From: Rhodoferax sp.
GTDB taxonomy: Bacteria; Pseudomonadota; Gammaproteobacteria; Burkholderiales; Burkholderiaceae_C
DNA length: 64,000 bases
NCBI RefSeq assembly: GCF_012927445.1
Contig: NZ_JABBPD010000007.1
Span: 1 to 64,000, forward strand
Reading direction: 5' to 3'
A program made the position numbers and the translations under genes. This document shows positions 30,926 through 57,770 of this stretch, piece after piece. The notes under the pieces are model-generated. The model was not told the DNA's origin and made no database searches. It was given only the letters and a program-made list of their open reading frames with translations. Numbering within the stretch: position 1 is the stretch's first letter; every line of letters starts with the position of its first letter.

Positions 30926-30944
30926 ATCTGCTCCATGGGTCACA

Positions 30945-31223: not shown

Positions 31224-31643
31224 GTGGAACGCTCTCAGGTAAGTCCATGATTCGAAGCCTCATTTGGACGTAAGGGTAGCCCTGAGATTGAATGCGAGCC
31301 ATTGGGGGTTTCCTTGATGTCACGAGAAATTCAGATTTGTCAACTTCGGACTCAGCGTGTCATCTGGCCACGCCAAGATGTTCCTGCGTTCTTAATTATT
31401 TGGAGACATGCTTCAAGCAGGGAAGCTCATTGGCATTGGCGCGGCTATACCTTTTGAGCGCGCAAAAATTGCCATGAAAGAAACCGTGGCAGCGCGCGAG
31501 AGCCATGCCACATTGCACGTCACTGCACGAGTAGCGGCACGGATTATCAAGACCCGCCGCTTCCAGCGGTGAGGAAATATTCGTGAGTAGTACAGAGGCC
31601 AGCTAATAGTCTGCTGGAGCGGCATACCCCGAGAGGTGTGCCC
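31224..31643. other. Leader region of the replication gene
   Basis: Apart from the possible 54-codon frame at 31408-31572, I see no gene. No clear iterons are visible. Control of rep by an antisense RNA, as in ColE2, would be expected here but cannot be read from the sequence. Confidence 0.4.
31408..31572 (+). CDS. Possible small basic protein upstream of rep
   Basis: An ATG-started frame of 54 codons encodes MLQAGKLIGIGAAIPFERAK, then an Ala/Arg-rich tail (HVTARVAARIIKTRRFQR). The arginine-rich end could bind nucleic acid. GGAG lies only two bases before the ATG, which is poor spacing. It ends 71 bp before rep. It may be spurious. Confidence 0.3.
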   Translation: MLQAGKLIGIGAAIPFERAKIAMKETVAARESHATLHVTARVAARIIKTRRFQR

Positions 31644-33042: not shown

Positions 33043-33807
33043 TCAGCTGCAAAAATGCTGTCGATGAAAGCGCAAATATGGTCTGTGCTCAGCGGACACC
33101 CAACGTAAACGCATGCCAGCGGCAAGTCCCATCTTTTGTTGGTCACTTAGCGTAATGACTTCGGACACCAACAACTCACCCTCATCCGTAAAGCTGACCA
33201 GGAAACTGTCGAACAAGACGTCCAGATTGGCGCTGAGTAAAAAGCCGTTGTACACATCCAGCCGCTCTGAGTCAGACGCGCATTCGGCCCACGGTTTGGC
33301 GTGGCTGGCACGCAGGGCTTGCGGCAGGGCCAAGCCCGTCACCGAACAGGCTCCGCCCCAATAATCCAACATGGCCTGGCGATAAGCCTGCTGCCCTACC
33401 CGCTGGCGCACCATGCGCAGCACTTCGGTGTTTTGTGCGGCGGGTTCGGGCATGGCCGATAGTTCCGCTTGCACTTGCTGCTCAAACGCCGTGACCGCTT
33501 GGTTTGGCAGGGCTTGCGACAGCGCGGCGGCACGGCGTAGCCACTGGGCCAGAACGGCCTCCGTCTGCAACACGAATCCATGCGTTACCCGGCCTTCGTT
33601 GGGGAAAGTGCGCGCCAATTCCTGCGCCAGCGTGGCCGATCCGGATTGGATAGCCACGTCAAATACATCCCCTACGACTGTCACCGTGACCTGTGCAGGG
33701 TGCCGGGCGGAAGCCAACGCCACATGCTCCTCATCCCCTGGCAGCACATGCTCAAAGCCATTGTCATGGCCTGCTTTCTCAATCAAGGTGCGTTGTAGTG
33801 GGTTCAT
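33043..33807 (-). CDS. HNH endonuclease (HNH_2 type), last gene of the defence operon
   Basis: The 254-residue protein ends in an HNH_2-type domain: CSVTGLALPQALRASHAKPW, then SERLDVYNGFLLSANLDVLF and DSFLVSF. The histidine of ASHAKPW and the following N and L-D-x-L-F-D positions form the beta-beta-alpha-metal site. The N-terminal 140 residues are a separate domain (ARTFPNEGRVTHGFVLQTEA) of the kind found in putative restriction endonucleases. It lies 42 bp after the AlbA_2 gene on the same strand and could supply the nuclease activity that a PLD protein gives in DISARM. That role is inference. Confidence 0.85.
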   Translation of the reverse strand: MNPLQRTLIEKAGHDNGFEHVLPGDEEHVALASARHPAQVTVTVVGDVFDVAIQSGSATLAQELARTFPNEGRVTHGFVLQTEAVLAQWLRRAAALSQALPNQAVTAFEQQVQAELSAMPEPAAQNTEVLRMVRQRVGQQAYRQAMLDYWGGACSVTGLALPQALRASHAKPWAECASDSERLDVYNGFLLSANLDVLFDSFLVSFTDEGELLVSEVITLSDQQKMGLAAGMRLRWVSAEHRPYLRFHRQHFCS

Positions 33808-33845
33808 ATCAGCAAAGCACCGACCCCGAATCGGATATACAGTTG

Positions 33846-33878
33846 GATTTCATCCGATTTCATCCGATTTCATCCGAT
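33846..33878. repeat. 10-bp tandem repeat at the end of the AlbA_2 gene
   Basis: The unit CATCCGATTT is present about 3.3 times in a perfect head-to-tail array (33846-33878). It covers the last codons and stop (33850-33852) of the AlbA_2 gene. Slippage would change the C terminus or remove the stop. Confidence 0.85.
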
Positions 33879-35535
33879 CCAATGCACCGATTCGGTAGAA
33901 GGAAGCAGGTCCAGCCCCCTCCAAGACCAGTAAATCGGATTGGCACATCCGTTTTAGAAGGCCTTTTACCTGGCCCTCACTCAAACGGCATAGCTCCATC
34001 GCCTCGGCGCGCTTGATGCGACCGTGCTGACGGACATAGCTCAGCACCATCTGTTCATTTTGAATAGGTGCGAACCCAGCTTGCCGCGTGTAGGCAGCCT
34101 TGTCAGCCACTGCCCCGTACACCGCAGCAGACAGCATGTAAGTGCGTCCCCGGGTGGCACCGTGCGCCTCTACAAAACCAGCTTCGGTCAGCGCCTGCAG
34201 CGTGCGCTTGGCCGAAGTCACATCTCGCTGAATACGCTGGGCCAGCTCCTCAGCAGACAAACGCTTCAGCTGACGTAAAGCGCCCAGAGCAATCAGGGAA
34301 TCGATGGGCATTTCGGTATTACGGCTGCGCTCTTCGTCCACCACCAGACGGCGAAAGTCCAGGTCGGCAGGCTCCGTGGGCATGCGCAACACCACGTTTT
34401 GCGAATCGGTGCGGGTGTAGTCGGGCGCGGAGCGGCCAAACTTCAGCATGCCCCGGTAAATCGTGTCCACACCGCGACCGGAGCGCTCCACCACGCCGAT
34501 ACGCTTCATTGCATCGGCCAGCGACCGGTTGCGGGGGCGGGGTTCGGTCACCAGAAGGTTCTGCAGCGTCACGCCATCCACCAAGCCGCCAGGGTTGCTC
34601 ACCACCAAAGCTTCGTCTTCCAGCCGGATGTGCACGGCCCCCAGACGGTGATAGTCCCGGTGGATCAGTGCGTTGGCCACCGCTTCACGGAAGGCCCCCA
34701 TGTCCACCATGGGCACCGGCACGCGGAACAGCCCCACCTGCAACTCTTCTTCGGGGTTGTAGGGACGGAAATTGGTTTCCAGCCAGTCCACCGCCTTGAG
34801 CAAGGGGTAACGGCGGAATTCGTTGAACTTAACCGACTGCTGCGCCATCACCTGAAAGGCGAACTCATGCGTGGGCACCCATTGCTGCAGCGCAGACTCA
34901 CGGCCCACCAAAAGCAAACCCGTCAGCGTGGGCAAGCGACTGCCATCGGGCTGACGGGCTGTCAGACCCAACGCACCATCCAAGGCTTCATCGTCCAGCT
35001 CCAGCAAAACACGGTCACCACCATATTGCTTGACCGCTTGTCGCAAGCGTTCCCGTTCTAATGGGTCAAAGTCAGCCAACGTGGTGCCCGCCACGGGCTG
35101 GGCGGAGACATCCAGCATGCCAAAGCTGCTGGCACGGCTGACACGGTCATGCGGCAGCATGGGCACGCATTCGGGTGTGCCGTCATGCTTGATACGGCGG
35201 CGCAAGTACACCCCGCCATTCGTCGCCACTTCTCCTTGTGCCTTGGGCACGTTGATGCGGGCCACAGTCATCCCGCCAGCCTCCACCGACGATACGGTGA
35301 TGCTGACGGATGGCGACGTTCGCGCAGCCACCATGCCCGCCAACCCCGTCAGCATTAGATGATCGGGGTGCAGGCCGGTAGGCGTGCCATCGTCTTCCAC
35401 ACCCAGCCACAAGTCACCGCCATCTGCATTGGCCAGGCAGACGACTGCCTCCACCAACTCAATGTCTGGCAGACGTTTGCGGTCGCTTTTGAATTCGACG
35501 GTGAGGGTTTCGGTTTCTGGAATAGAAGAAGTCAT
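33850..35535 (-). CDS. AlbA_2 (Schlafen-type) and HATPase_4 domain protein
   Basis: The 561-residue protein starts with an AlbA_2 domain: ETLTVEFKSDRKRLPDIELV, LANADGGDLWLGVEDDG and GVYLRRRIKHDGTPEC. A HATPase_c_4 region follows (FREAVANALIHRDYHRLGAV, LVVSNPGGLVDGV, RPRNRSLADAMKRIGVVERS). The C-terminal third has two winged-helix-like units (LSAEELAQRIQRDVTSAKRT; GRIKRAEAMELCRLSEGQV). Such proteins are called ATP-dependent helicase/regulator-like and may be regulators or nucleases. It starts one base after the RES gene stop, so the two are tightly coupled. Its role in the operon could be control of expression. Confidence 0.85.
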   Translation of the reverse strand: MTSSIPETETLTVEFKSDRKRLPDIELVEAVVCLANADGGDLWLGVEDDGTPTGLHPDHLMLTGLAGMVAARTSPSVSITVSSVEAGGMTVARINVPKAQGEVATNGGVYLRRRIKHDGTPECVPMLPHDRVSRASSFGMLDVSAQPVAGTTLADFDPLERERLRQAVKQYGGDRVLLELDDEALDGALGLTARQPDGSRLPTLTGLLLVGRESALQQWVPTHEFAFQVMAQQSVKFNEFRRYPLLKAVDWLETNFRPYNPEEELQVGLFRVPVPMVDMGAFREAVANALIHRDYHRLGAVHIRLEDEALVVSNPGGLVDGVTLQNLLVTEPRPRNRSLADAMKRIGVVERSGRGVDTIYRGMLKFGRSAPDYTRTDSQNVVLRMPTEPADLDFRRLVVDEERSRNTEMPIDSLIALGALRQLKRLSAEELAQRIQRDVTSAKRTLQALTEAGFVEAHGATRGRTYMLSAAVYGAVADKAAYTRQAGFAPIQNEQMVLSYVRQHGRIKRAEAMELCRLSEGQVKGLLKRMCQSDLLVLEGAGPASFYRIGALDRMKSDEIG

Positions 35536-35536
35536 C

Positions 35537-36739
35537 TCAAATTACGGTGTTACCACAACTATTTACACGACCAGACCTTGACACGTTAAGTTCCATGGCC
35601 GCAAATGCCTCATGGGTATGGGTCGCCTGACCATCATCGTACTGCGGGAAAAGAACCAAATTTCTACCATCCTGTGCCACCGCACTGGGGTAAATCAACC
35701 CATCCACCCGCTTGCTTTTGGCGTGCTTAAAGGCCTGCGCAAAATACTCGGAAACTACTTGTGTCGGTACATACTCAATATGCTCACTTCCATCGTGGGC
35801 TACGGGCTTGGAAATTTCATCCGTGAACTTGTAAAGAAACTGCACCAAGTCATGCTCACGCCTCTTGTCGGAAAAAACTGATGGACACCTGGGGAAGCAA
35901 CTTAGATCAATGACATGCAAATCGCGGATGGGTGACCATTGGCTAATGGTGACCTGATCCCCCTTCTTTGACCTTGTTTCTGCCAACGCAGTTTTTTCGT
36001 CATAGGCCAGGTACAGGTACGGAATGCCAGCCGGATTCATTCTTCCTGCCGATGCTTTCTCTTTAGGAGGTGGGCCTAGTTCCAAAACCGAATGGGGATG
36101 CTTGCCGGGCCTAACACGTTGCAAGATCGTTGCTACCGGTAGCTTGCGTACCATGCTGTGTTGACGCACCAATTGCCCCAGAAATGGAAGCATTTCATGC
36201 ACACTCACCAAGTCATCGCTGTAACTGCGGGGGCGCTTGCGGGTTTGAAAATGGAATCGGCTTTGAAATTTCACCGCATGCGCGAATGACTCCCACGACC
36301 AATGGAGGCGCTCATGGTTATACGAACCCATCCAATCCCCATCCGGGGCATCGACCCATCCAGTATTTGCGAATGCCTCGGCCACATCGTTCTTTAGTGC
36401 ATCCGACCAATCCAGCCCCTCAACATCAAGGACCTGTTCGAGTACGTCTCTTGAAGACATGTATTCAATATTGAACTCTCGGTCATAGGGGCATCCAGCG
36501 TTCGCTTCATCGTTGTAGCTGTATTTGACCCCAAACAACACAGCAGCCATCAAAACTGCGATAGGCGCGGCCTTGCGTGTCTTGCTTTTGCAGTATGAAC
36601 AAGATACGCCACCTAAGTTCTTACGCACCAATTGACGCAGATGCGAGTCTTCGCCTATGCAGTGCTGACACACCCAGGTTTCCGGGTCTTGCCAGCCGCG
36701 CTCCTCTTGCTCTAACCATTGGCTTTTGACAATACCCAT
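35537..36739 (-). CDS. HEPN/RES N-terminal domain protein with RES domain
   Basis: The 400-residue protein begins with a zinc-ribbon-like cluster (VCQHCIGE and SCSYCKSK, cysteines at about 24, 27, 47, 50) and the HEPN/RES-NTD1 region. The C-terminal RES domain is clear: GRMNPAGIPYLYLAYDEKTA, then LAETR, with the arginine (about 233), tyrosine and glutamate (about 254) of the RES NAD-binding pocket, and VDGLIYPSAVAQDGRNLVLF near the end. RES toxins degrade NAD+. The ATG at 36739 is preferred over an upstream non-family extension. It lies between the ATPase and AlbA_2 genes and may be the cell-suicide effector of the defence operon (inference). Confidence 0.82.
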   Translation of the reverse strand: MGIVKSQWLEQEERGWQDPETWVCQHCIGEDSHLRQLVRKNLGGVSCSYCKSKTRKAAPIAVLMAAVLFGVKYSYNDEANAGCPYDREFNIEYMSSRDVLEQVLDVEGLDWSDALKNDVAEAFANTGWVDAPDGDWMGSYNHERLHWSWESFAHAVKFQSRFHFQTRKRPRSYSDDLVSVHEMLPFLGQLVRQHSMVRKLPVATILQRVRPGKHPHSVLELGPPPKEKASAGRMNPAGIPYLYLAYDEKTALAETRSKKGDQVTISQWSPIRDLHVIDLSCFPRCPSVFSDKRREHDLVQFLYKFTDEISKPVAHDGSEHIEYVPTQVVSEYFAQAFKHAKSKRVDGLIYPSAVAQDGRNLVLFPQYDDGQATHTHEAFAAMELNVSRSGRVNSCGNTVI

Positions 36740-36823
36740 GGCTATCTCATTGAATTCCACACCACAAATACAAAGCCGCAGACTCAACGCGGATGGTGGT
36801 ACACCAATCAAACAGAAAACCGA

Positions 36824-38821
36824 TCATTGCCTAAGCTCCGTTTGCATCTGGATTTGTGAATTGAAACGGCTCTTGAACAACAACCCATCATCGCGGCTAG
36901 GGTCCAAGGTCAAACGCAGGTAGGGAAGTACCTGAAGGGACTCTGGTGGCGGCGTTGTGGTTGTAATGATGTACTGGAACGGCACCTCTTCCCCATAGCC
37001 CTGGGTTTCGATGCGCTCAATCAAATGCAGAAAATCGGCATAGGGGCGAGGTCCCATATCGGCCTCCCGTGGGCAATCGTGAATCAACATACCCGGGAAG
37101 GTGCTGGCCGAATTGCTTGCATCCAACAGACACACCAAGTCACCCAACAAAATCTCCAAGACGCGAAATGCCTCACCACCACGAAGCGAGAGGCGGAATG
37201 GTCGGAGTTCATCACGCACATCCATGGTCCCGAAGGCCTCCCTCGACAGCAGCTCTTGGGCCAAGGCATCGGTTAGCTCGCCCAGCACACGTTCACGCCC
37301 CGATATCTCATGTTGGACAATCGAAAGCTGTGTGCGTGTTGAATCAATTTGTCGTTGAATTGTTGCGCAAAGTTCAGCGGCCTTTACGACCCGTGTAGCA
37401 GCCTCTGGCGAACCAGATGCCTGCTCCCAACGAGCAAGCTCTTTCAAAAGCCGCTGACCTCGGTCTTTTTCAACCAGCAATGTGTCACGCCGCAGCTTAG
37501 GGGATTTGAGTGCATTGTCTTTGGCGTTAACCTTCGCCAGCGCTAAATTCAACGGCGCATCCAAGTCATTGCGGCGCTTCAGCGCTTGCACGGCGCGCTC
37601 TGTCCAATCTTCGGCATTCTTGAGCAAAGCGTTTTGATCACGCTTATCAACAAAACTCAACGTCTTAATTTCTGCCTGTATGTGCTGGCACTGCTGAAAC
37701 AAAACTTGGCCATATTCACAAGGGCCTGTCGCGCTTTTCAAGTCTTCACGCCTTTTGGCCAACTGCTTGTAGGCAGCCTCATCTCCAAGCCGAGCCGCGT
37801 CTGCCATCTTGTATTCGACATCAGCAGCGTTAAACGCATCTTTGACTTGTTTGTACTCAATGCGAACTTGCAACAGGGCTTCCTCCAGCACCGCCATTTC
37901 GCGATTCAACTGATCTAACGAGGCTTCGGCTTTCGACTGGGTCTTTGTAATTTCTTGTTCTACGCTGTCTTTAAACAAATCATTGGTAACCATCGGAAGG
38001 TCGCGGGGCACTTCCAGCCAAACACGCACTTCCGATTCAATCCGCCCTCGAATCAGGCTAGGTTCTCGCAACAAATTGGTCTGCGCCGTTTGGGCCGCCT
38101 CCTGTTCACTTTGCAAGCGACGCAGACGGGCCAGCAAATCCGATTCACGGTTGTCCACCAAACCCAGCACCGCGCGCAAAACGATGGGCGGGTCTTGACG
38201 AGGACGCTGTAGCCCTACTCCTTCACCATCTCGCCAGTTAAAAAAACCCTTGAAGCGGGCGGCTTGATCTCTGCCCACCCAGGCCAGCACATGCCGCCAC
38301 TCAATCACTTGCCCGGTTTCTGGAATCGTCCGGGGCGCAACGCCAGACAACATGGATCCTGAAAGCAGGGTTTCAAATTCCTTGTAGACCATTGACCCAC
38401 CGTTCGCCAACAGCGATGCCAAATCATCCCCTGGCTCGGCCATTCCTTCGCGGTGGGCATTGAAGTGGCGAAACACGGCGTAAGGCGTGCCTTCAATATG
38501 AACAACGGCACCAACTCCTCCCTGAGGCAACTCGGATATCAACTCGGCTCTTAGCTCATCAATCGACTTGCTGCTATCTCCCAAACAATAGCGCAACAAA
38601 AGGCAGAGCGATGTCTTTCCCACGCCGTGCCCCGCCGCGTGAATGCCAGCATGCCGACTGGATTCATCCGGCTCGCATGCCCATATCACATTCATTCCAC
38701 GACGCAGGGAGATGGATCGAATCAGGTGTTCTGGATCTGGCTCCCGAAATAGCTCAAGACGCTCAACCCAAAGACGGGGCTGCGTTCTCTGTGCTGGAAG
38801 GTGCTTGCGTAATTCATTCAT
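36824..38821 (-). CDS. SMC/RecN-like P-loop ATPase with central coiled coil
   Basis: The 665-residue protein has an N-terminal Walker A (AAGHGVGKTSLCLLL, GHGVGKTS at 64-71), a long helical middle (about 230-500) rich in Glu/Gln/Leu/Arg and typical of coiled coils (SKAEASLDQLNREMAVLEEA), and a C-terminal Walker B-like GMLIHDCPREAD. This is the layout of RecF/RecN/SMC-like or DUF2326-type ATPases that bind DNA ends or sense DNA structure. It starts 13 bp after the methylase gene. I do not recognise a named family. A role as sensor or DNA-loading motor of the operon is inference. Confidence 0.7.
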   Translation of the reverse strand: MNELRKHLPAQRTQPRLWVERLELFREPDPEHLIRSISLRRGMNVIWACEPDESSRHAGIHAAGHGVGKTSLCLLLRYCLGDSSKSIDELRAELISELPQGGVGAVVHIEGTPYAVFRHFNAHREGMAEPGDDLASLLANGGSMVYKEFETLLSGSMLSGVAPRTIPETGQVIEWRHVLAWVGRDQAARFKGFFNWRDGEGVGLQRPRQDPPIVLRAVLGLVDNRESDLLARLRRLQSEQEAAQTAQTNLLREPSLIRGRIESEVRVWLEVPRDLPMVTNDLFKDSVEQEITKTQSKAEASLDQLNREMAVLEEALLQVRIEYKQVKDAFNAADVEYKMADAARLGDEAAYKQLAKRREDLKSATGPCEYGQVLFQQCQHIQAEIKTLSFVDKRDQNALLKNAEDWTERAVQALKRRNDLDAPLNLALAKVNAKDNALKSPKLRRDTLLVEKDRGQRLLKELARWEQASGSPEAATRVVKAAELCATIQRQIDSTRTQLSIVQHEISGRERVLGELTDALAQELLSREAFGTMDVRDELRPFRLSLRGGEAFRVLEILLGDLVCLLDASNSASTFPGMLIHDCPREADMGPRPYADFLHLIERIETQGYGEEVPFQYIITTTTPPPESLQVLPYLRLTLDPSRDDGLLFKSRFNSQIQMQTELRQ

Positions 38822-38834
38822 GGGTCACATGCTC

Positions 38835-43838
<5,004 letters not shown>

Positions 43839-43859
43839 GGGCAGGGCAATCTGAATGTC

Positions 43860-43912
43860 GCTATAAATATAGGAGCTTCTTGCGCAATTTCTACGGGGGC
43901 TAGAGGTCGATT
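43860..43912 (+). repeat. Dispersed repeat, copy D, inside the island operon
   Basis: The stretch GCTATAAATATAGGAGCTTC, TTGCGCAATTTCTACG and GGGGCTAGAGGTCGATTT lies between the SNF2 helicase stop and the methylase start. It matches the chromosomal copies, so the island's operon has lived in a related genome. Confidence 0.6.
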
Positions 43913-43916
43913 TAGC

Positions 43917-46775
43917 TTATAAAACATCAGGCAGGAGCACGTAAACGCCAATCACATCAACCGGCAAGCAAGGGGCCACGCTGTACTGGCCCACGTCGCG
44001 GGCGGCTTCGCGCACGCGGCTATGGTCTGCAAGCAAAACCTTAGCGCGCTCCCGAGCCAAGGCTTCCAGACGCTGGGGGTGGGCCTGCAAAAAGTCCAGC
44101 GCAAGCGCCACTTCACGGCTCATGGCCTCACGCGGCAGGTTGCCGGTGGGCTGACATTCCAGCAGCTGGGCGGTGGCGTCGTCACTCAGCCACTCAGGGT
44201 TGCTGCGGCCTTTCACGGCCAAGGCGACGGTCTCTTCCGCCATCATTTGGTAAGGCTGGCGGCGGCGCACGTAGCCCAACTGGTGGCGCAAGCGCAGCAG
44301 GTAGATGGTGGTGACCACGTCCACCGCATCGGTGATGGTGGCGGCGCACCGCGCGGTAATGCTGGATTCGCCCTGCAAGGCGTTTTCAATCAGGTGGTCG
44401 GCAAGCACGGTGACCAGCGGGTGGCTGCGGTGCAGGTCCGCAAAGTCCAGGTTAAGAACGGGCTTGCGGCTATCGGACACCAGGCCTTCGTCGGCCAAGC
44501 GCTGGCGCAGGGCTTCGGGCAGGTGCTGGGTGGGCAGGCGGTGGAGTTGGCCGCGGGCGGGCTCCAGCGGGGCGTTCAGGCGGGCGCAGGCACTTTGCAC
44601 AAAGCGCTGCACATCAGCACTACTTCCAAGGGCGGTTTGCTGTTTTTGCCATTCGGGCAGCACTTCATCGGGCCGGATACGGCGCTGGGCGAAGACGGTG
44701 CGGTTGGCCTTGGCTTTTTCCAGGGCATCGGTCCACAGGGTTTGCAAGGGGGCCAGCACCTGCTCGGCCTCGGCAAAGTCAAAACCCAGCTGCTGGCTAC
44801 GCGATGAGTCGCGCTTCATCAGTGCGGCTTTCACCATGGCCTGGTTGATGCGGAGCTTGTCCTCAGGCATGGGCACCAGTACGCCCAGTTCTTTCTGGAT
44901 GGCCTCGCCCTTGCGCAAGATAACGTTGAGCACAAAGCCGTCTACCGGGTTGTCCTGGCCATAGAGCATGGTGCAGCGCACCTCGGGGGCTTGCTGGCCG
45001 AAGCGGTCTACTCGGCCTTCGCGCTGCTCGTGGCGGGTGGGGTTCCAGGCCAGGTCGTAATGCACCACGGCAGTAAAGAGATGTTGCAGGTTGATGCCTT
45101 CGGACAGGCAGTCAGTGGCGACCAGGATGCGGCCACCATTCGTGTCTGCACCCTCCTCCATGCTCTCGATCTTGTCGCGGCGCTCTTCAGGGCTGAGTTC
45201 ACCCGTCACCACGTCCACCATTACTTTGGGGAAATTCTTTTTCAGCTCGGCAGCCACATAGTGCGCGGTTGCCACATAGCGGCAGAACACCACGGGGGCG
45301 AAGCCGTCTTTCACCAGCCCTTCCATATGGGTGACGAGGGCGGCCAGCTTGGGGTCACCTGCTTTGCCGGACAAGCGCTGGGCTTCAAGGATGAGGGCCT
45401 GCAAGCGCTGGGCATTTTGCAGGCGGTCGCTAATTTGACCAGCGGGCTCCAGGTCGTTGCTGCCCAGGTCGTCGGCTTGGCCGTCGTGCAGGCGATCGTC
45501 TTCAAGCAGTTCATCATCACCTTCAGCCGCCAGGGCTTCGGTTTTGCCTTCCAGGCGGGTAGTCAGCGCCTTGACTGCAGCGGCCGGACTGGAAGCCACG
45601 CACCGCAGCAAGGCCAGCGTGGCGTACCAGATCAGGCGGGCGCTGCCTTGCTGAGTTTGCTCCACCGATTCGGCCATCTCGCGGCAGTAAGCTTGTACAG
45701 CATCAAAAAAAGCGCCCCAGTCTCCGGTGAGTTTGTAGGTGAGCTCGGTTTTCATGCGGCGGGCAAAGCCACGGCCATCATGGGTTTCAACCTGCCATTC
45801 CACAATGTCTTTGCGACGGCGTTGCACAAAGTGACGTGCCAATTGCTGGCGCAACGGGTCATCGGCCGAGGCTCTGGTTTGCAGGCCCAAAAAGGCGGGG
45901 TCGAGCAGGGAGAGCAGGTTGTAAAACGCGATCTCATCACCCGAGTGCGGGGTGGCGGTGAGCAGCAGCAGGTGGCGCTCTGCATCTTTGGCAAGGCGTT
46001 GTAGCAGCTCAAACCGCAATTGTTTACCAGCACCACTGCTGGCGCAAGTGTGTGCTTCGTCCACGATGATGCATTCAGGAGCGATGGACAAGAAGTGTTC
46101 GCGGTGGCGCTCACTTTTGATGTAGTCCAGACTCACCACCACGATGGGGTGCTGGTCAAACAGGCCCACGCCATGGGGCAAATCGCGCTCCACCCGGCTG
46201 GCACTGGCAGACGTGAGGGCGATTGCCTGCATATTGAAGTGACCTTGCAACTCCGCTTGCCACTGCTCTACCAAGTGGGGAGGGCAAAGCACGGCTAAAC
46301 GACTCACTTCGCCACGGTCCATCAGCTCGCGCGCTATGAGACCGGCCTCAATGGTTTTGCCGATACCCACGTCATCAGCAATCAACAGGCGCACAGTGCT
46401 CAGACGCAGGGCCATGAGCAGGGGCACCAGTTGGTAGGCGCGCGGCTCCACAGCGATGTTGCCGAAAGAGCGGAAGGGCCCACCACCAGCACGCAGCTTC
46501 AGCCGCAAGGCATCGCGCAAGAGCAAGGCGGCAGCGTGGTTGCCGGGCTGCTCAGGGTTGGGCCAGGCAAATGTGGCGGGCTCTACGGGTACAAATTCCA
46601 GCTCAGGTATCAGGGTGATGATGTCTTCATCCGCACCGCCCAAGGGGCGCAAGCGCAGCAGGCTGCTGCCGTCAGCTTGCCGGGAATCCAATTGAGTATT
46701 GGCCTGCACCACCCACTCACGCCCGCGCGCGCGCACCAGGTTGCCGGGATGGAAATCATGGGTAGCAGTGGTCAT
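43917..46775 (-). CDS. SNF2-like helicase, DISARM DrmD-like
   Basis: The 952-residue protein has an N-terminal module (GNLVRARGREWVVQANTQ, LLRLRPLGGADED) followed by a superfamily 2 helicase: Walker A region LLIADDVGIGKTIEAGLIA (DVGIGKT at 135-141), DEAH box IIVDEAHTC, LLLTATPHSGDE, and a C-terminal helicase half (INLQHLFTAVVHYDLAWNPT, then RHEQREGRVDRFGQ). Both the N-terminal module and the helicase resemble DrmD of class 1 DISARM, the SNF2 protein of that anti-phage system. It starts 18 bp after the giant helicase stop. It would translocate on foreign DNA in concert with the other helicase. Confidence 0.85.
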   Translation of the reverse strand: MTTATHDFHPGNLVRARGREWVVQANTQLDSRQADGSSLLRLRPLGGADEDIITLIPELEFVPVEPATFAWPNPEQPGNHAAALLLRDALRLKLRAGGGPFRSFGNIAVEPRAYQLVPLLMALRLSTVRLLIADDVGIGKTIEAGLIARELMDRGEVSRLAVLCPPHLVEQWQAELQGHFNMQAIALTSASASRVERDLPHGVGLFDQHPIVVVSLDYIKSERHREHFLSIAPECIIVDEAHTCASSGAGKQLRFELLQRLAKDAERHLLLLTATPHSGDEIAFYNLLSLLDPAFLGLQTRASADDPLRQQLARHFVQRRRKDIVEWQVETHDGRGFARRMKTELTYKLTGDWGAFFDAVQAYCREMAESVEQTQQGSARLIWYATLALLRCVASSPAAAVKALTTRLEGKTEALAAEGDDELLEDDRLHDGQADDLGSNDLEPAGQISDRLQNAQRLQALILEAQRLSGKAGDPKLAALVTHMEGLVKDGFAPVVFCRYVATAHYVAAELKKNFPKVMVDVVTGELSPEERRDKIESMEEGADTNGGRILVATDCLSEGINLQHLFTAVVHYDLAWNPTRHEQREGRVDRFGQQAPEVRCTMLYGQDNPVDGFVLNVILRKGEAIQKELGVLVPMPEDKLRINQAMVKAALMKRDSSRSQQLGFDFAEAEQVLAPLQTLWTDALEKAKANRTVFAQRRIRPDEVLPEWQKQQTALGSSADVQRFVQSACARLNAPLEPARGQLHRLPTQHLPEALRQRLADEGLVSDSRKPVLNLDFADLHRSHPLVTVLADHLIENALQGESSITARCAATITDAVDVVTTIYLLRLRHQLGYVRRRQPYQMMAEETVALAVKGRSNPEWLSDDATAQLLECQPTGNLPREAMSREVALALDFLQAHPQRLEALARERAKVLLADHSRVREAARDVGQYSVAPCLPVDVIGVYVLLPDVL

Positions 46776-46793
46776 GCGTGCAAAGGATTGGAA

Positions 46794-49700
46794 TTAACGA
46801 AAGACATGAGGATAAGCGGCGAACTGCTCTGTCCACTGGGCTGAATTAGACATGTTTATGACGGACCAGCCTTTATCGGTGAGCTCGGCCTGCCATGCGG
46901 CTTGCAAAGGCTGCAATATCACCAGGGTGCGGGCAGCTTTGTACTGACCCGCCACGATAAGTTGACCGCCGAGCACTGGCAACTGAGTTTGATCCGGCAC
47001 TTTGTGCCCGCCTGCCTGAAGCGCTTGTTTCCATTGGTCAAAAAGTACGTCATGTGTGCCAGCATCCCCCACCGCGGCGGGCGAGTTAGAAGCGGACGTT
47101 TGACTTGGATCAGCAGGTGCGGCAGCTACCTGGGCGTTGGCCAAGACAACCAACATTTCAATGGCCTGCGTGTTGCGGCGGTTGATGTGGTCATGGTCGG
47201 GTTGATTGAAATACGACAACAGGCACTGGTAGCAACCGGCTTCGCAAATGCTGTGCCCGTCCTGCGTCTTTTGTTCCAGATCGGGCAAGCCCTCCACCGA
47301 CCAAGGTCCTGCAGGTTCACTGTAGTGCATCACGCGCAAGGCCGCAGCGGCTACCTGGGCCATGGCCTGGGGCTCTGTGGCTAACCGGGTCAAAACACCG
47401 GCACCGCCTTCAGCCGCTTCGTAAAACAGCAGGGCCTTACGGTCGTCCTGTTTGGGCAAGGGCTCGGCTACCAATTCAGATTCTTCAATCTGGAAGGTCA
47501 TTTCAATGCCGCGCTTGAGTGCGGCTTGTAGGGTGGCCATGGCTTCCAAATCAAGCGGCACGTTGGGGGCCAGGATGAGGATATTGCGATGGTCCTCCAC
47601 GAAGGGAACGATTTGCTGGTTAGGTACCTTGTCAAGCAAGCCATCGTCACTACTGCCGTCTTCGGTGGCACCTGGCTCGTCTTTCTTGCTCCACTGGCCG
47701 GTGATGGGGTTGATGTAGAAACCGAGCTGGTTTTTGTTTTTGCGGCGGCGCCAGCCGCGGTTGATGCGCCAGATTTGCGCCGCGGGAGAATACGTCAGCG
47801 CGGCCAAGGCTTGCGCCTCTTCACCGCTGCCACTGCTAATAAGTGACTTGTGCTGCGCGATCTTGCCGTCCAATCCTGGCAGGAAGCGGTAGGTGGTTTG
47901 CAGCTCGAAGCCCTGACGCTGGCGGTCTTCATCGTTGATGGAGATGCGCTCAACAGGGATGGTTTCGACAGTTTCAATGCGGTAGAGGTCTCTGACCCAA
48001 TCGAGGTCGGTCAACAGAGCGCCACAATTTTCGCAGCAGTTTTGGAGTGGCTCAGTGCCATCCTCTCCGCCCATATGGGCATAACCGCACTGGCTGCAGA
48101 CACGGCTGGCCACGGTAGCCAGGGTGCTATTGCCAGAGATGTGGTCAGACGAGCCGACATTGAGCTTGGCGCGCACCACACGGTACATGCGACCCTGGTG
48201 GTAAATGAGACTGCGGGGGCCGAATTCGGACAGCGCCAGAAAACGCGGGCGGCTGACCATGCTGCCTTCGTCATCCTTGCCTTTGGCCCCAGTCCCACCC
48301 TTGGCGGGTATCCAGGCCATCAAAGGCAAACGTGGGAAGTTATATCCGGGCAAGAAGCCTTGGCTTGCCAAGTAGCGGTAGGTATAGAAATCAGAGTTCT
48401 GACCGTTGCCCGACTTGAGCAAAACACTGTACTGGCGGGCAGCATCACCATAACGGCGCTGGGCATTTTGCTTTTCAGCGTGCGAGGTGGTGTAGCTTTT
48501 AACCACCTGATCCGCCATGTCCATTTGCTTGCGTGTGGCATCCACCAATGCACGCCAGCGCTCAAAGGCGGCACTGAAGTCTTGGCCCGCACGCTCAATG
48601 GTGGCGGCCACATGGTCGGCGGAGAACCAAGGACTGCTGTTGAGCACGGAAGCAAGTTGGGCAACAAAGCCGTGGGAACTCTGCAGAGCGCGGGCCGTTA
48701 CCTCGGGGGCATTGAGCTTGTCACGCAGGGCGGGCTGCAATGGTTTATCTACCTGCTCCAAATCGAGCATGGGTGCAATGCTGGTGTCCAGCTGCACCTG
48801 TGCGGCAGCCAGCCACACAGCATGCAAGTGGCTTTCAATCAAATCGCGGTTGGCCAGATCCAGGGTGGGCGGCTTGACGATGCCGTGCACCATTTCGGTG
48901 GCATGGTGGAAAAACCATTGGTCATGTGGGCTGAGTGCGGCGCAGTAAGTGATGACCAAGGCCTGCTGCCCTGAGCGCCCCGCTCGACCGCTGCGCTGGG
49001 CGTAGTTGGCGGGAGTGGGTGGTACGTTGCGCAGGTAGACCGTGTTCAGGGCTGAGATGTCGACGCCCAGCTCCATGGTGGGCGAGCAGAACATGACTGG
49101 CAGGCGCTCCAGCGGAGCCTCATGCGCGGGGTTGTCCAGCCAGTCTTTACGGTCTTTTTCGGTGTAGCGGAAGCGCTGCTCCAGCAGCTGACGGCGGGCG
49201 GAATCCACTTGCGCAGTGTGTTCTTGGGCCTCAAAGTCGAACAAGGGATGCCCCTGTTGACGCAGGGTCAAGGCCACCGCCTGGTACAGATTGCGGAAGA
49301 ACTGGTTGTGTTTGCCGTCTTCCAGTGCCCGCGACTCGTCCACCAGCAACCAATCCATGGTGGAAGCGTTGAGGCGCCAGCCAATGACTTGGCTGTCAAC
49401 GTCAAACTTCTGGACATAGCCATAGTTAGACGCCGCTTGAAGCAACTGCTCCATCAACTCCACCCACTGTGGATCCTTCCAACCGACAACCTGTCCAGCC
49501 GCCGCGCTGTCTTTCCAAAATGACGCTGCCTTGAGGTCTTTGAGAAGTCGGGAGCGAGAACCTCCCGGCACCAGGTCGACACGAGGTTTGCCTTTGTATT
49601 CAGGGCGTTTGGTCAGGATCAGGTATTTGGCTGTTTCCAGATTCTCATCCGACGCAAATGCCCAACGCTCATTCAGGTACTGGTGCGCTGTCGTCTTGGC

Positions 49701-52103
49701 CTTGTCTTGTTCCACGGCATCCAGGTAACGCGTTTCCAGGCACAGGCTGCGGCGCATGCTGTCGAAAACCATGCGTGCAAGAATGCCACGCTGCTGCGGA
49801 CTGATGCGGGTCAAGACGGGGCTTTTGGCAAACAGCGAAGCCTCTGTCGCAAATTCATCAAGTCCCCGATAGGCAATGGACAGCAGGTTGAGCTGGTCCA
49901 GATTGGGATTATTGAAACGCCAGCCACGCCGCAGGTCGCGCAAAAGGCGGTAACCGATGATGAAACGCATGGTGCGCTGCGCGTCTTGACGTGCCAGACC
50001 CATTAGCTTGGGTGTGCGCAGGTATTCGGCCAGCGTGCCAAAGTCAGTCTTGTCAAACCCCAGCGCCTTAAAGACGGCATCCGCCAGGGTTTCTTCTGTC
50101 AATATGCCCTGGTGGTTTTGCAAAGCGCCAATCAGGGCTGAGCGCAGGGTGAGCAAAAACACAAAGTCATTGAAATGCCCCGCCTGCAAGGCGGCATCCT
50201 GCCGGTTGTCCGTAAAGCCAAGTAACTTGCGCGGATCAGGTTGGTCGGACGGCATGTCCTTCACATCAAAGAGCTGCCGGATGGCGCTCAGGGTAAGGAT
50301 CGTGGTCGCCGACGAACGCCCCTCTCCGGAAAGGCTTGCCAGTCGGTTGATGTCTTTGCCATGAACCTCATGGGTTTGGCCACAGTTCAGGCAAAAGCGG
50401 AATTTGCCAGGGATGTACCAATAGGACTCACCACGACCCTGCCAGCCCTGCGGACTGACCTGCACGTCTTCCGGAACATATTTTCTGAAGGTACTTTTGA
50501 CTTTGGGCTCGGCCTTGGCCAGGTCCAACCAGGATTCTGGCAAGTCCTCAATGCTGCCTTTGTAGGACTGACGCAGATTAGATGGGCACAAAAAACCGTA
50601 GCGGGCGTTCTCATCATCATCGCCCGAGATGTCGTCAATCTCACGCGGGGTGTATTCCTGCTGGGCCTGACCAGCGCGCCATACGGGGTGGTACTCCTGC
50701 CCGCAGTCGCGACAGAAGTGAACCGGGTACAGCTGGGCCCCCTCTTCCTGCCGACCCGGGGCGTAGCGTTGGGCATCCAGGGTGATGTGGCGTACGCCCT
50801 CTGGCTCAAGCGTCGCCAGCACCTTGCCAGGGCCGCTGATGAACTGGTGCAATTTGAAGGCGAAGGGTGGCCGACCTTGCAGAGTTTTGACGTCGTGGGC
50901 CGCTAGTAAAAAGCGCTGCAAGCCAGCCATGGCCTCATCAAAGGTGCATTGCGCATCGGCCGCCAAACGGCCAGCGGCATCTTTCATCGTGATGGGCTTT
51001 GCGCGACGGGGTGGCTCATCTGCGGGTAGCTCAATGCCCAGCGTCAGCTCGACCCAAATGGCCAACGGGTCATCGCTAAAAGCGTCAAAATCTGCCCAAG
51101 CATGGGCACATCTCAATAAAACAGCCTTGAGCAGCGACTTGATGGCCTGTACGTCCTTGCCAGGGTTGGTGACACGCTGCAAGGTTTCACCAATCACATC
51201 GTGCTCGGTGATGGATGCAGCAAACAACAAACTGGCGACACTTGCCACCGTTTGATTGCGGTCGGCTTGCGTGCCGGTGGAGGACATGGTGGCAGAGGTA
51301 CCAATACAGACCAGTTGCTCAGCCTTCAGGCGCTCGCGCAAACGACGCACCAACAGAGCCACATCGGCCCCCTGCCGCCCTCGGTAAGTATGGAGCTCAT
51401 CCAGCACCAGAAATTCAAGCCCCTGGCAGTGCTCGACCACCTGACGGTCTACAGCCTCAAAGCGCGTCAGAATCAACTCCAGCATCATGAAGTTGGTGAG
51501 CAGGATGTCGGGCGGGTTGTCGGCAATTTCTTGCCGTTCTGTCTTACTTTCTTGCCCGGTGTAACGGGCCACCGTAAAGGGAGCCTCACCTTTGGGGTAG
51601 CCATGCAGGAACTTGTCCAGCTCTTCCAGTTGGCTGTTGGCCAAGGCGTTCATCGGGTAAATAACGATGGCCCGCGTGCGCTTCTGCGGGTCAGTCGCCT
51701 TGGCTTTGACGATGCGGTCAATCATGGGAATGAAGAACGCCAGTGACTTACCGGAGCCCGTGCCGGTGGTTACCACGTAGCTTTGCTGGTTCTGAGCCTT
51801 GGCCAGGGCCTGCAACTGATGGACATAGAGATGCAAGTCCGATGGCTTACCCTCCGTTTTTCCAGTCTGAAAAATGTGCGCGCAATCAGCGTGCAGTATC
51901 CCGTCCGTGGCTAACTGCTGAACCGTGCCACTGCGCTTGTAATTGGGGTTAATTTGAATCAGTGGCTCTGGCCAGTATCGACCACGGGCATATTCTTCTT
52001 CTACCTTGGTCAGAATGTCTTGTGCCGCAACCTTGGAAAAGCTGCGTGAAAACGAGCTGTATTCGTCAATGAGCCGGTTGCGAAAACTGAAAACATCATC
52101 CAT
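46794..52103 (-). CDS. Giant DEAD/DEAH helicase with DUF1998-type C-terminus (DruE/DrmA-DrmB-like)
   Basis: The 1769-residue protein has Walker A VVTTGTGSGKSLAFFIP (TGTGSGKS at about 113-120), a DELH box (FLVLDELHTYRGRQGADVAL) and motif VI QRSGRAGRSGQQ, together a superfamily 2 helicase. Several zinc clusters follow the insertions (FCRDCGQEYHP, FCLNCGQTHE, CSQCGYAHMG, NCCENCG). The end is DUF1998/MrfA-like: EGGAGVLTRLA, then CEAGCYQCLLSYFNQPDHDH. Druantia DruE and the DISARM DrmA/DrmB pair have the same parts; here they are in one chain. It leads the seven-gene operon. The ATG at 52103 is chosen; upstream codons begin at TTG. Confidence 0.88.
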   Translation of the reverse strand: MDDVFSFRNRLIDEYSSFSRSFSKVAAQDILTKVEEEYARGRYWPEPLIQINPNYKRSGTVQQLATDGILHADCAHIFQTGKTEGKPSDLHLYVHQLQALAKAQNQQSYVVTTGTGSGKSLAFFIPMIDRIVKAKATDPQKRTRAIVIYPMNALANSQLEELDKFLHGYPKGEAPFTVARYTGQESKTERQEIADNPPDILLTNFMMLELILTRFEAVDRQVVEHCQGLEFLVLDELHTYRGRQGADVALLVRRLRERLKAEQLVCIGTSATMSSTGTQADRNQTVASVASLLFAASITEHDVIGETLQRVTNPGKDVQAIKSLLKAVLLRCAHAWADFDAFSDDPLAIWVELTLGIELPADEPPRRAKPITMKDAAGRLAADAQCTFDEAMAGLQRFLLAAHDVKTLQGRPPFAFKLHQFISGPGKVLATLEPEGVRHITLDAQRYAPGRQEEGAQLYPVHFCRDCGQEYHPVWRAGQAQQEYTPREIDDISGDDDENARYGFLCPSNLRQSYKGSIEDLPESWLDLAKAEPKVKSTFRKYVPEDVQVSPQGWQGRGESYWYIPGKFRFCLNCGQTHEVHGKDINRLASLSGEGRSSATTILTLSAIRQLFDVKDMPSDQPDPRKLLGFTDNRQDAALQAGHFNDFVFLLTLRSALIGALQNHQGILTEETLADAVFKALGFDKTDFGTLAEYLRTPKLMGLARQDAQRTMRFIIGYRLLRDLRRGWRFNNPNLDQLNLLSIAYRGLDEFATEASLFAKSPVLTRISPQQRGILARMVFDSMRRSLCLETRYLDAVEQDKAKTTAHQYLNERWAFASDENLETAKYLILTKRPEYKGKPRVDLVPGGSRSRLLKDLKAASFWKDSAAAGQVVGWKDPQWVELMEQLLQAASNYGYVQKFDVDSQVIGWRLNASTMDWLLVDESRALEDGKHNQFFRNLYQAVALTLRQQGHPLFDFEAQEHTAQVDSARRQLLEQRFRYTEKDRKDWLDNPAHEAPLERLPVMFCSPTMELGVDISALNTVYLRNVPPTPANYAQRSGRAGRSGQQALVITYCAALSPHDQWFFHHATEMVHGIVKPPTLDLANRDLIESHLHAVWLAAAQVQLDTSIAPMLDLEQVDKPLQPALRDKLNAPEVTARALQSSHGFVAQLASVLNSSPWFSADHVAATIERAGQDFSAAFERWRALVDATRKQMDMADQVVKSYTTSHAEKQNAQRRYGDAARQYSVLLKSGNGQNSDFYTYRYLASQGFLPGYNFPRLPLMAWIPAKGGTGAKGKDDEGSMVSRPRFLALSEFGPRSLIYHQGRMYRVVRAKLNVGSSDHISGNSTLATVASRVCSQCGYAHMGGEDGTEPLQNCCENCGALLTDLDWVRDLYRIETVETIPVERISINDEDRQRQGFELQTTYRFLPGLDGKIAQHKSLISSGSGEEAQALAALTYSPAAQIWRINRGWRRRKNKNQLGFYINPITGQWSKKDEPGATEDGSSDDGLLDKVPNQQIVPFVEDHRNILILAPNVPLDLEAMATLQAALKRGIEMTFQIEESELVAEPLPKQDDRKALLFYEAAEGGAGVLTRLATEPQAMAQVAAAALRVMHYSEPAGPWSVEGLPDLEQKTQDGHSICEAGCYQCLLSYFNQPDHDHINRRNTQAIEMLVVLANAQVAAAPADPSQTSASNSPAAVGDAGTHDVLFDQWKQALQAGGHKVPDQTQLPVLGGQLIVAGQYKAARTLVILQPLQAAWQAELTDKGWSVINMSNSAQWTEQFAAYPHVFR

Positions 52104-52237
52104 GCCTGAGTCCCTGATTTGTTGGCTGGCATCTGCTTTCCGTAAACGCCACTCCAATTTGTTCGAATTTTCTCCAACTGTAACGGACTCAGAGTTCCCA
52201 AACCCGCCCGGTTAAGCCGAGTTCAGGATATCCAGAA

Positions 52238-52270
52238 GAAAGCAGAAGCGCCAACGGCGCCTCTGCTTTC
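52238..52270 (-). terminator. Hairpin terminator after the cytosine methyltransferase
   Basis: Fifteen-base arms with one mismatch (GAAAGCAGAAGCGCC and GGCGCCTCTGCTTTC) and a 3-base loop lie 22 bp beyond the stop of the cytosine methyltransferase gene. On the - strand the arm ends in TTTCTTCT. It separates this gene from the operon that starts at 52103. Confidence 0.65.
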
Positions 52271-52291
52271 AAAACGCCCAAATGCCGTGGC

Positions 52292-53758
52292 CTAACCGGC
52301 GGCGATGACCGACTCATCAAGGCCTCCGACGCTTGGGAAAGAGTCGCGCACCTCGCTCTGCGCATGCGTCATTTGCCCCAAAATGGCCTGGCCAAGGCGG
52401 GCCACTAATCCCGGCAGCAAGGCATTTCCCATCAAAAACCCCCGTCGTGTGTCCGAAATTCCCGGCAAAGCCGTGAACCCCCTCGAGAAACCCATCAACT
52501 CCTCAACTTCTTCGGGAGTCAAGCGTCGCAACCTTCCGTCTGAATGCGCAATTACATGCCGGGTGCGCGAGGCAGAGGCCCCCACCTCAGATGTCAAAAC
52601 GGTACGTGAAGGCTTGTCGAGCGGGTCCGGAAACGACAGCGCACCTTCACTGAATTGATAGGCGTGGCCGCTTCGACTTACCCTTGCAACGCTTTTGCTT
52701 CCTTTTGCATGTTGCCACCGCGACAAAGCATCGCCGTCCAGAAAAAACTTCTCAGCCACGCTGACTGTTTTGGCTACGACTTGCCCAAGGGTTTTGGGGG
52801 TGACATTCTCAGCGTATGCTCCATTTGCACAGACAAAATGTGGGCGGACATCCACCGTCCAAACGTTACCGCCCATGCACACACCGGACTTCAGGAAGGG
52901 CGTTGTCCCCTTCTTTGTCGGGCAGAAGCTTTCTCCCACCTTTTTGACATCATTTGACACATGCACGTGCTTGAGTTCACCGACCGCTTTTGTCGGAAAT
53001 GCCTGGCCTAACGGCGACTCGCCGATCAGCCAGTCCAACGGAGCCGCATCGATACAGTGCTGCCACCGCATGTAATCAGACGATGACTCGTGCACTGCAA
53101 CCATGAAAATCCGACGGCGACGCTGGGGGCTGCCGTAGTCTGCACCGTTAACTACCTGCCAACTGGTGGCATAGCCCAACGCCTGCAGGCTCGACAGCAT
53201 GGTGGCGAAGTCCCGCCCCTTGCACTTGCCTGGACTGCTCAGTAGCCGGTCCACATTTTCCAGCACCACCATACGAATCGGCTTCCCCGCTTGACGCCGG
53301 ATATCCAGCAGTCGATGAATTCCCCACCAAAGAACGCCTTTTGCACCTTCGAGCCCTTGGCTTTGAGACAACGGCTTGGCAACCGAGAAATCCTGGCAAG
53401 GGAAGCCTCCCACGAGCATGTCTGGGGAGAGCGAGTGCAGGCGACCTAGCTCCGCTTCATCTTGAAGCACCGCAAACAAGTCGCGGTTAACCGGGGCGAG
53501 CCCCCAACGGGCCTCATACACGCGGGCTGCATGCTGTGCTTTGCTGCCTGGCTCCCATTGATTGGCCCACACCAACTGAAAGGCTCGTGGTAGCCCTTGG
53601 GATATGCGTTGCTGATTGACCCGTTCCAAACCCAGGTGGAACCCACCTACGCCGGCAAACAGCTCGAGAACCCGAAGGGGCGGCTTGTGGTCTTGCTCGT
53701 GGCCCTGGCTCGCGCCAAGGGACTGTAAAGAATGCGCGCTGGCATTGTTGTGCGTCAT
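52292..53758 (-). CDS. DNA (cytosine-5-)-methyltransferase
   Basis: The 488-residue protein contains the C5-methylase motifs in order: I (LRVLELFAGVGGFHLGLE), IV with the catalytic Cys (LVGGFPCQDFSVA), VI (MVVLENVDRLL), VIII (GSPQRRRRIFMVAV) and X (RRGFLMGNALLPGLVARLG). The target-recognition region is between about 250 and 400. It methylates C5 of cytosine in a sequence not deducible here. It is upstream of the giant helicase but separated by a terminator, so it is its own unit. DISARM class 2 (DrmMII) and Druantia type II (DruM) both include such an enzyme. A hairpin covers its ribosome binding site. Confidence 0.93.
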   Translation of the reverse strand: MTHNNASAHSLQSLGASQGHEQDHKPPLRVLELFAGVGGFHLGLERVNQQRISQGLPRAFQLVWANQWEPGSKAQHAARVYEARWGLAPVNRDLFAVLQDEAELGRLHSLSPDMLVGGFPCQDFSVAKPLSQSQGLEGAKGVLWWGIHRLLDIRRQAGKPIRMVVLENVDRLLSSPGKCKGRDFATMLSSLQALGYATSWQVVNGADYGSPQRRRRIFMVAVHESSSDYMRWQHCIDAAPLDWLIGESPLGQAFPTKAVGELKHVHVSNDVKKVGESFCPTKKGTTPFLKSGVCMGGNVWTVDVRPHFVCANGAYAENVTPKTLGQVVAKTVSVAEKFFLDGDALSRWQHAKGSKSVARVSRSGHAYQFSEGALSFPDPLDKPSRTVLTSEVGASASRTRHVIAHSDGRLRRLTPEEVEELMGFSRGFTALPGISDTRRGFLMGNALLPGLVARLGQAILGQMTHAQSEVRDSFPSVGGLDESVIAAG

Positions 53759-57521: not shown

Positions 57522-57770
57522 GGGACAGCCCCGCGAAGCGGCAGCGGCTGGCGGCACGGGGAAAGCTGGGGAGGGTCAAGGCCGCGGGGGCGGCTGGATA
57601 AAACCCGGTGAAAAGCAACTGCATGGACAACTCCGTAAATAGGGAGTTGCGTATAGCTTCGCAGCGGCATCATGATTTCGACACCACTGCCTGCGCAGTC
57701 GACCGCACCCGAGCGCTATCCATCGCAGTGGCTCGCAGGCGTTTTTGCCAGAAAAACGTCAGAAAACCAT

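What the first reader, a model, noticed from the sequence alone, without database searches (positions are those of the whole stretch)
33043..53758. Composite anti-phage operon combining DISARM-like and Druantia-like parts
Seen: a co-directional run from 52103 to 33043 of giant DEAD/DEAH-DUF1998-type helicase, SNF2 helicase, Eco57I-type adenine methylase, SMC/RecN-like ATPase, RES protein, AlbA_2 protein and HNH nuclease, with gaps of 1-84 bp, plus a separate cytosine-5 methylase directly upstream. Known: DISARM class 1 uses DrmD (SNF2) and an adenine methylase with DrmA/B/C; class 2 uses a cytosine methylase; Druantia uses the giant DUF1998 helicase DruE, and its type II has a cytosine methylase. 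Inference: this gene set matches neither system exactly and may be a new hybrid restriction-type defence system.
Basis: partly seen in the sequence, partly recalled or inferred. Interest (0 to 1): 0.92.

Follow-up and report, generated by a model that had tools for sequence, protein, structure and literature searches.

The report
Phage-defence operon with swapped nuclease
A mobile element in this bacterium carries a known type of phage-defence operon (ARMADA Type I) in a form I found no description of: the helicase's own DNA-cutting tail has lost its active site, a separate HNH cutter sits at the end of the operon, and exchangeable extra defence genes are slotted in between.

Summary
The seven genes exist as described. 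The first three (giant YprA/DUF1998 helicase, SNF2 helicase, Eco57I/PglX-like methylase) have the content and order of ARMADA Type I, named in a 2025 preprint (PMC12458937) as the link between DISARM and Druantia. The core is known, so 'new hybrid' is half right.

Two things are not in the preprint text I read. (1) The HNH gene is the constant last gene of a large branch: 68 of 109 ARMADA-I-like loci carry it. In 58 of them, the window included, the helicase's C-terminal Vsr nuclease has lost its catalytic motif but kept its fold. Ten keep both; 21 have only Vsr. Two have dead Vsr and no HNH: one IS-wrecked, one followed by McrBC. On the tree HNH gain precedes Vsr loss, but Vsr changed only four times: suggestive, not proof. 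(2) Between methylase and HNH lies a slot filled in 51 of 67 loci (other gaps: 5 and 3), holding 43 gene families, including DRT1a, Mokosh and short-pAgo genes; here an SMC-like ATPase, a HEPN/RES protein and a Schlafen-kinase protein.

The operon rides a 33.7-kb element between 48-bp tRNA-Phe repeats. The cytosine methylase looks like a passenger.

The parts
46794..52103 (-). YprA-like giant helicase (DEAD, Helicase_C, MZB/DUF1998); likely start at 52103
   Evidence: Pfam, alignment of relatives, PADLOC DruE-type models up to 314 bits
46797..47066 (-). C-terminal Vsr-fold domain of the helicase without the DF.Y...DG..H motif
   Evidence: tail alignment, motif test, profile comparison, model vs 1cw0/3r3p/3hrl
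43917..46775 (-). SNF2/RapA-type (BrxHII-like) helicase
   Evidence: Pfam, NCBIfam DrmD 335 bits, under its cut-off of 610
38835..43838 (-). Eco57I/PglX-like N6-adenine DNA methylase, 1667 aa
   Evidence: Pfam; PADLOC DrmMI 234 bits; NPPW and DPACGSGHF seen in the sequence
36824..38821 (-). cargo: SMC-like ATPase, family found in the slot of 27 of 67 loci
35537..36811 (-). cargo: HEPN/RES-domain protein (predicted NAD-consuming toxin, by family recall)
   Evidence: Pfam RES 71 bits, HEPN_RES_NTD1 85 bits; relatives in the same slot in L022 and L049
33850..35535 (-). cargo: Schlafen (AlbA_2) + histidine-kinase-type ATPase + wHTH protein
   Evidence: Pfam; slot relatives in L012, L021, L035, L037, two of them tested
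33043..33807 (-). HNH nuclease, constant last gene of this branch
   Evidence: Pfam HNH_2; H169, N187, H248 in 59 of 59 relatives; VcaM4I-like HNH domain
57843..57890 (.). attachment repeat (48 bp) in the 3' part of tRNA-Phe (57845-57920, - strand)
24136..24183 (.). second copy of the 48-bp repeat; far end of the element
56178..57557 (-). tyrosine integrase of the element, next to tRNA-Phe
   Evidence: Pfam Phage_integrase
54130..55941 (-). large serine recombinase of the element
   Evidence: Pfam Resolvase + Recombinase
31638..32795 (+). replicase/PriCT-type replication protein of the element
   Evidence: Pfam Replicase, PriCT_1

Best explanation
It is an ARMADA Type I-like restriction operon of an HNH branch, carried by a tRNA-Phe integrative element. 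Shown by sequence: gene content, order, degenerate Vsr tail, constant HNH, cargo slot, element ends. Inferred mechanism: the PglX-like methylase marks self DNA at a site set by its own recognition region; the SNF2 and YprA motors engage unmarked or replicating invader DNA; in the ancestral form the helicase's own Vsr domain cuts, whereas here the Vsr domain is a catalytically dead scaffold and the separate HNH protein (DNA-binding-like N-domain plus HNH) cuts. The genes between methylase and HNH (SMC-like ATPase, RES protein, Schlafen-kinase-wHTH protein) are probably co-transcribed, exchangeable second-line effectors that act if the restriction core is blocked, by consuming NAD or cutting RNA.
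Against: No experiment. Vsr state changes only 4 times and HNH 3 times on the tree; the independent-pairs test has 3 pairs and is not significant. Ten loci keep both nucleases. L146 has dead Vsr, no HNH and McrBC after it. Docking of HNH on the dead tail has only a weak partial correlation behind it (0.19, no significance test). Fold matches of the tail are of middling Z and Foldseek alone missed E 0.001.
Confidence: 0.6

Rival explanations
1. The HNH gene is only another cargo or defence-island neighbour, and the Vsr tail decayed for unrelated reasons in one ancestor; the shared pattern is common descent.
For: Few independent changes on the tree and a non-significant pairs test; HNH genes also occur in the slot as cargo (PtuB-like gene in L047; Pfam HNH in L041's cargo gene).
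Against: HNH stays last while slot contents turn over (the commonest cargo family needs 15 changes, HNH 3); co-divergence with SNF2 exceeds that of the commonest cargo (0.67 against 0.48); in 9 of 67 loci its start overlaps the methylase stop.
Confidence: 0.25
2. A new hybrid system of DISARM and Druantia parts.
For: PADLOC scores DruE-type (314 bits), DrmD (305) and DrmMI (234) models on the three core proteins.
Against: The same three genes in the same order are already named ARMADA Type I and occur widely; NCBIfam DISARM cut-offs are not reached.
Confidence: 0.05
3. A decayed, non-functional relic whose tail and cargo have no role.
For: The Vsr motif is lost; broken relatives exist (L011, L013).
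Against: All window ORFs are open and of family length; perfect 48-bp element ends and an open integrase frame; the motif-less tail is kept in 58 loci, the 43 with a named lineage spanning five phyla.
Confidence: 0.07

Closest known systems
ARMADA Type I (Bell et al. 2025, PMC12458937)
   Same: YprA helicase first, then BrxHII-like SNF2, then PglX-like methylase; helicase tail of Vsr type; mobile-element carriage.
   Different: Vsr motif lost; constant HNH gene at the end; cargo slot before it. HNH occurs in that main text only in a reference title; supplement and figure drawings not seen.
ARMADA Type II (same preprint)
   Same: Homologous helicases and methylase; elements at tRNA-Phe in E. 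coli; shown to protect.
   Different: Order SNF2-methylase-YprA followed by a RelE-GajB-like helicase; here YprA comes first and no such helicase was seen.
DISARM Class 1
   Same: DrmD-like SNF2 and DrmMI-like methylase.
   Different: DrmA and DrmB are separate there and DrmC is a PLD nuclease; here helicase and DUF1998 are fused and no PLD gene lies in the operon.
Druantia
   Same: Giant DruE-type helicase.
   Different: No DruA-D, DruF-H partner was seen; SNF2 and adenine methylase instead.
BREX/BREX-related backup effectors (Rakesh and Krishnan 2026, PMC12839542)
   Same: Nucleases and Schlafen-kinase-wHTH genes embedded in a core defence locus; compensating nucleases near a helicase that lacks its own.
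   Different: Different core (PglZ or DUF499); ARMADA, Druantia and DUF1998 do not occur in that main text.
VcaM4I and TagI restriction endonucleases (HNH)

Membership tests
ARMADA Type I | Gene content and order YprA - BrxHII-like SNF2 - PglX-like methylase | tested here: met
   70 of 80 loci share it
ARMADA Type I | Position in the ARMADA I clade of the YprA tree | not tested
   The preprint's sequences were not at hand; my tree uses SNF2 and my own loci
ARMADA Type I | C-terminal predicted active Vsr nuclease (described as typical of the clade, not as the criterion of membership) | tested here: not met
   Motif absent in the window, fold resembles Vsr; hence filed as a variant branch
ARMADA Type II | SNF2-methylase-YprA order with RelE-GajB-like helicase | tested here: not met
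   Order differs; no UvrD/GajB-type match in the four genes after the methylase
DISARM | Separate DrmA and DrmB, with DrmC (PLD) | tested here: not met
   MZB fused to the helicase; no PLD match in the operon; NCBIfam DrmA 14.8 bits against 950, DrmD 335 against 610
Druantia | DruE with DruABCD, DruMFG or DruH | tested here: not met
   DruE-type score only; no Dru partner in the complete PADLOC lists of the four genes after the methylase (lists of the three core genes are capped at 25)
Dpd | DpdE plus 7-deazaguanine genes | tested here: not met
   PADLOC DpdE 696 bits but NCBIfam DpdE 198 against a cut-off of 500; no 7-deazaguanine gene among the 15 proteins scanned
BREX | PglZ and BrxC | tested here: not met
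   No PglZ or BrxC match among the 15 proteins scanned, as far as the capped lists show
Schlafen-kinase-wHTH backup effector (as in PMC12839542) | Schlafen/AlbA_2 + histidine-kinase-type ATPase + wHTH in one protein | tested here: met
   Pfam SLFN_AlbA_2 50 bits, HATPase_c_4 61, HTH_24 25; catalytic residues not tested
Vsr / PD-(D/E)XK nuclease (active) | Vsr fold with the catalytic motif | tested here: not met

The most novel reading that the evidence does not exclude
A large branch of ARMADA I has handed its DNA cutting from a fused Vsr domain to a separate HNH subunit, keeping the dead Vsr as a docking platform, and has turned the gap between methylase and HNH into a dedicated exchange slot in which whole autonomous defences (DRT1a, Mokosh, short pAgo) are swapped under one operon: a natural plug-in chassis with a constant restriction core outside and interchangeable second-line effectors inside.
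Probability: 0.45. Interest if true: 0.75.

Novelty: new variant of a known kind. Interest (0 to 1): 0.6.

Why it matters
In the ARMADA paper I found, the tested systems were Type II, and the Type I nuclease is taken to be the fused Vsr. If in a large branch the cutter is a separate HNH, experiments and annotation that look at the helicase alone would miss it. The slot gives a list of candidate defence genes (43 families, 26 singletons) found by position rather than homology, and near-identical loci with different cargo (L080/L088, L015/L016) are natural experiments on how layered immunity is assembled.

Tried and rejected
Rejected: (a) Strict mutual exclusion of Vsr and HNH, my first hypothesis: a group with both exists, betaproteobacterial in the 8 of 10 with a named lineage. 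(b) C5 methylase as a component: no homologue in the other fetched loci. (c) One obligate seven-gene system: the cargo is exchangeable. (d) PADLOC's full-length 'DpdE' hit as a sign of Dpd: the NCBIfam score is far under cut-off.

Led nowhere or weak: the SMC-like ATPase could not be placed. A partial correlation of the HNH N-domain with the helicase tail (0.19; 0.20 with the preceding 600 residues, 0.05 with SNF2, n 49, no significance test) is too weak to show docking. Viral contigs gave 7 relatives, several of them partial or of other types, none with an HNH hit over 60 bits. Foldseek alone gave no match at E 0.001 for the tail; the Vsr match comes from the second aligner at middling Z. The independent-pairs test was not significant. 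No HNH was found for L017: its locus ends 1.7 kb after the methylase, and the one weak hit in its genome lies on another contig.

From I fetched 44 regions, not every match: truncated hits and most weaker ones were left out, among them all but 2 of the cyanobacterial matches near 1500-1615 bits, which by the preprint may have reversed gene order, and all but 1 of the Deinococcota matches of 657-710 bits. 'Undecidable' means the sequence ends too soon. 'Vsr-only' required 7 kb or more beyond the methylase (6 of 67 HNH genes lie farther) or no HNH near it in a search of the genome or record (for L006 and L007 the plasmid record alone; L038 is unsure, since its contig ends 3.2 kb after the methylase and its genome has a 122-bit hit on a contig that I did not place). 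L008 was reached only after joining over its plasmid origin. In the controls the tails were untrimmed.

Literature: absence claims rest. PMC12458937: abstract, text parts 1-4 of 8, legends, passages. PMC12839542: abstract, passages, first part of section 35. PMC13192584 and PMC11090510: passages. Other papers: listings only. No supplement was read. Recalled, from no call: RES proteins as NAD-degrading toxins, VcaM4I as modification-dependent, the role of the named HNH active-site residues, motif names of helicases and methylases, DISARM/Druantia/BREX gene lists.

Full report
WHAT IS THERE.

THE CORE IS NAMED. A tblastn of the helicase against plasmids found 190 records, 67 of them with a place covering at least 80% of it. 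I opened seven. In Roseomonas, Deinococcus (methylase in pieces), Paracoccus, Sphingomonas and Acinetobacter soli (helicase not annotated, in several ORFs) the SNF2 helicase and the adenine methylase follow directly; in Acidithiobacillus caldus an IS and a toxin-antitoxin pair lie between; the Hydrogenimonas record ends after SNF2 and its methylase appears only across the plasmid origin. This order is ARMADA Type I of Bell et al. 2025 (PMC12458937). That preprint tested ARMADA Type II in E. coli and reports direct, non-abortive protection. By its text ARMADA helicases end in a predicted active Vsr nuclease. By a word search of its main text, HNH occurs once, in a reference title.

A SURVEY. 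Loci cut short were extended on the same contig. A second sample came from genome searches at E 1e-100: 17 of 399 genomes of the order, 14 of 398 of the phylum, 9 of 369 of the class, 23 of 111 of the phylum of G042 (Meiothermus) and 18 of 244 of the phylum of G037 (Cyanobium); these matches include other YprA types, and the first three searches each count the window's own genome. 44 regions were fetched, partly overlapping the first sample; duplicates noticed by contig were dropped.

NUCLEASE HAND-OVER. I classed each helicase tail by the pattern DF.[YW].{6,14}D[GDE]..H. Of 109 ingroup loci: 58 dead Vsr with HNH (window included), 10 intact Vsr with HNH, 21 intact Vsr without HNH, 2 dead without HNH, 13 intact and 5 dead that cannot be decided. 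One of the 21 (L038) is unsure. The two exceptions are L013, cut by an IS transposase with only a C-terminal, 39-bit HNH-like fragment after it, in which Pfam finds nothing, and L146 of the Deinococcota set, followed by an AAA_5/McrC pair (Pfam McrBC 306 bits). Fisher p is 3.8e-11, but this ignores kinship. On an SNF2 tree with two outgroup rows, Vsr-only loci form the basal grade; the HNH carriers, except L008, form one 76-row branch (SH-aLRT 85) in which the group with both nucleases (14 rows, including L033 with a dead tail) stands beside the dead-Vsr group (62 rows, support 99). Fewest changes: HNH 3 on 91 rows, Vsr 4. An independent-pairs test finds 3 usable pairs, 1 the same way and 2 without difference, so it cannot reach significance. 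Gain of HNH and then decay of Vsr is parsimony, not proof.

THE SLOT. In 67 loci with all four genes, an inserted ORF of 100 aa or more lies between helicase and SNF2 in 5, between SNF2 and methylase in 3, and between methylase and HNH in 51. Counting same-strand ORFs of 150 aa or more, the slot holds 105 ORFs in 43 families, 26 of them singletons. Contents identified, one representative tested each unless noted: the SMC-like ATPase (27 loci); DRT1a (1410 bits, L026); Mokosh MkoA (762 bits) with MkoB (244 bits) in L030, with relatives in L027; a short pAgo (592 bits) with its REase partner (558 bits) in L016; GmrSD, Fic, HD-domain and PDC-S39 proteins; RES (3 loci) and Schlafen-kinase proteins (5 loci). 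About 29 cargo proteins were scanned in all; several gave nothing. Slot contents turn over fast: the ATPase family alone needs 15 changes on the tree. L080 and L088 share 92.7% DNA identity over 10.3 kb of core and 86.7% over HNH but have different cargo and a different stretch inside the methylase, probably its target-recognition region; L015 and L016 (91.9% over 9.3 kb) likewise differ in cargo. In nine loci the HNH start overlaps the methylase stop, with no cargo.

THE CARRIER. A perfect 48-bp repeat at 24136-24183 and 57843-57890, the second in tRNA-Phe, brackets integrase, serine recombinase, operon and a replicase gene. Its 26-bp part occurs in the genome only at these two places, up to 3 mismatches allowed. 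The preprint describes ARMADA II elements at tRNA-Phe in E. coli.

WHAT IT WORKS LIKE. Shown: the anatomy. From the families: methylation of self, helicase-driven DNA engagement, HNH cutting. Inferred: the dead Vsr as scaffold for HNH, and the cargo as a second layer. The latter is modelled on embedded backup effectors in BREX, among them Schlafen-kinase-wHTH proteins of the same architecture as the gene at 33850-35535; that paper also notes nearby nucleases where a helicase lacks its fused one (PMC12839542), so the two themes are not new in themselves, only for this system.

VERDICT. Observation confirmed; interpretation half right; a variant branch of a known system with a nuclease arrangement and cargo slot that I did not find described in the papers I could search.

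Noticed in passing
window 43917-46775: PADLOC's 'DpdE' model PDLC02853 gives 696 bits over the full length of this ARMADA-type SNF2 helicase, while NCBIfam DpdE stays far under its cut-off: a risk of mislabelling such loci as Dpd.
   Followed up: partly
L016 22093-24962: Genes scoring as a short pAgo with its REase partner lie inside the ARMADA operon, between methylase and HNH.
   Followed up: partly
L080 20250-21471 and L088 20247-21528: Near-identical loci differ in a stretch inside the methylase, probably the target-recognition region, so specificity seems to be swapped as well as cargo.
   Followed up: no
L007 32687-36624 and L146 10429-14735: McrBC genes follow ARMADA-I-like loci in Deinococcota (annotated in L007, Pfam in L146); in L146 they accompany a dead Vsr.
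   Followed up: partly
window 52292-53758: C5 cytosine methylase upstream of the operon, best PADLOC match MTase_II (401 bits), without a recognised partner nuclease beside it.
   Followed up: partly
window 27229-29433 and 25154-26323: A 734-aa protein without Pfam match at 0.01 and an AAA-like 389-aa protein (under cut-offs) within the element; function unknown.
   Followed up: no
window 30422-31027: HAD_SAK_2 protein (Pfam: HAD domain in Swiss Army Knife RNA repair proteins) beside the replicase gene of the element.
   Followed up: no
L008 (joined) 30043-33785: The Hydrogenimonas plasmid locus has dead Vsr and an HNH but falls outside the main HNH branch, with a TIR-like and an AAA ATPase gene as cargo: perhaps an independent gain or a transfer.
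   Followed up: partly
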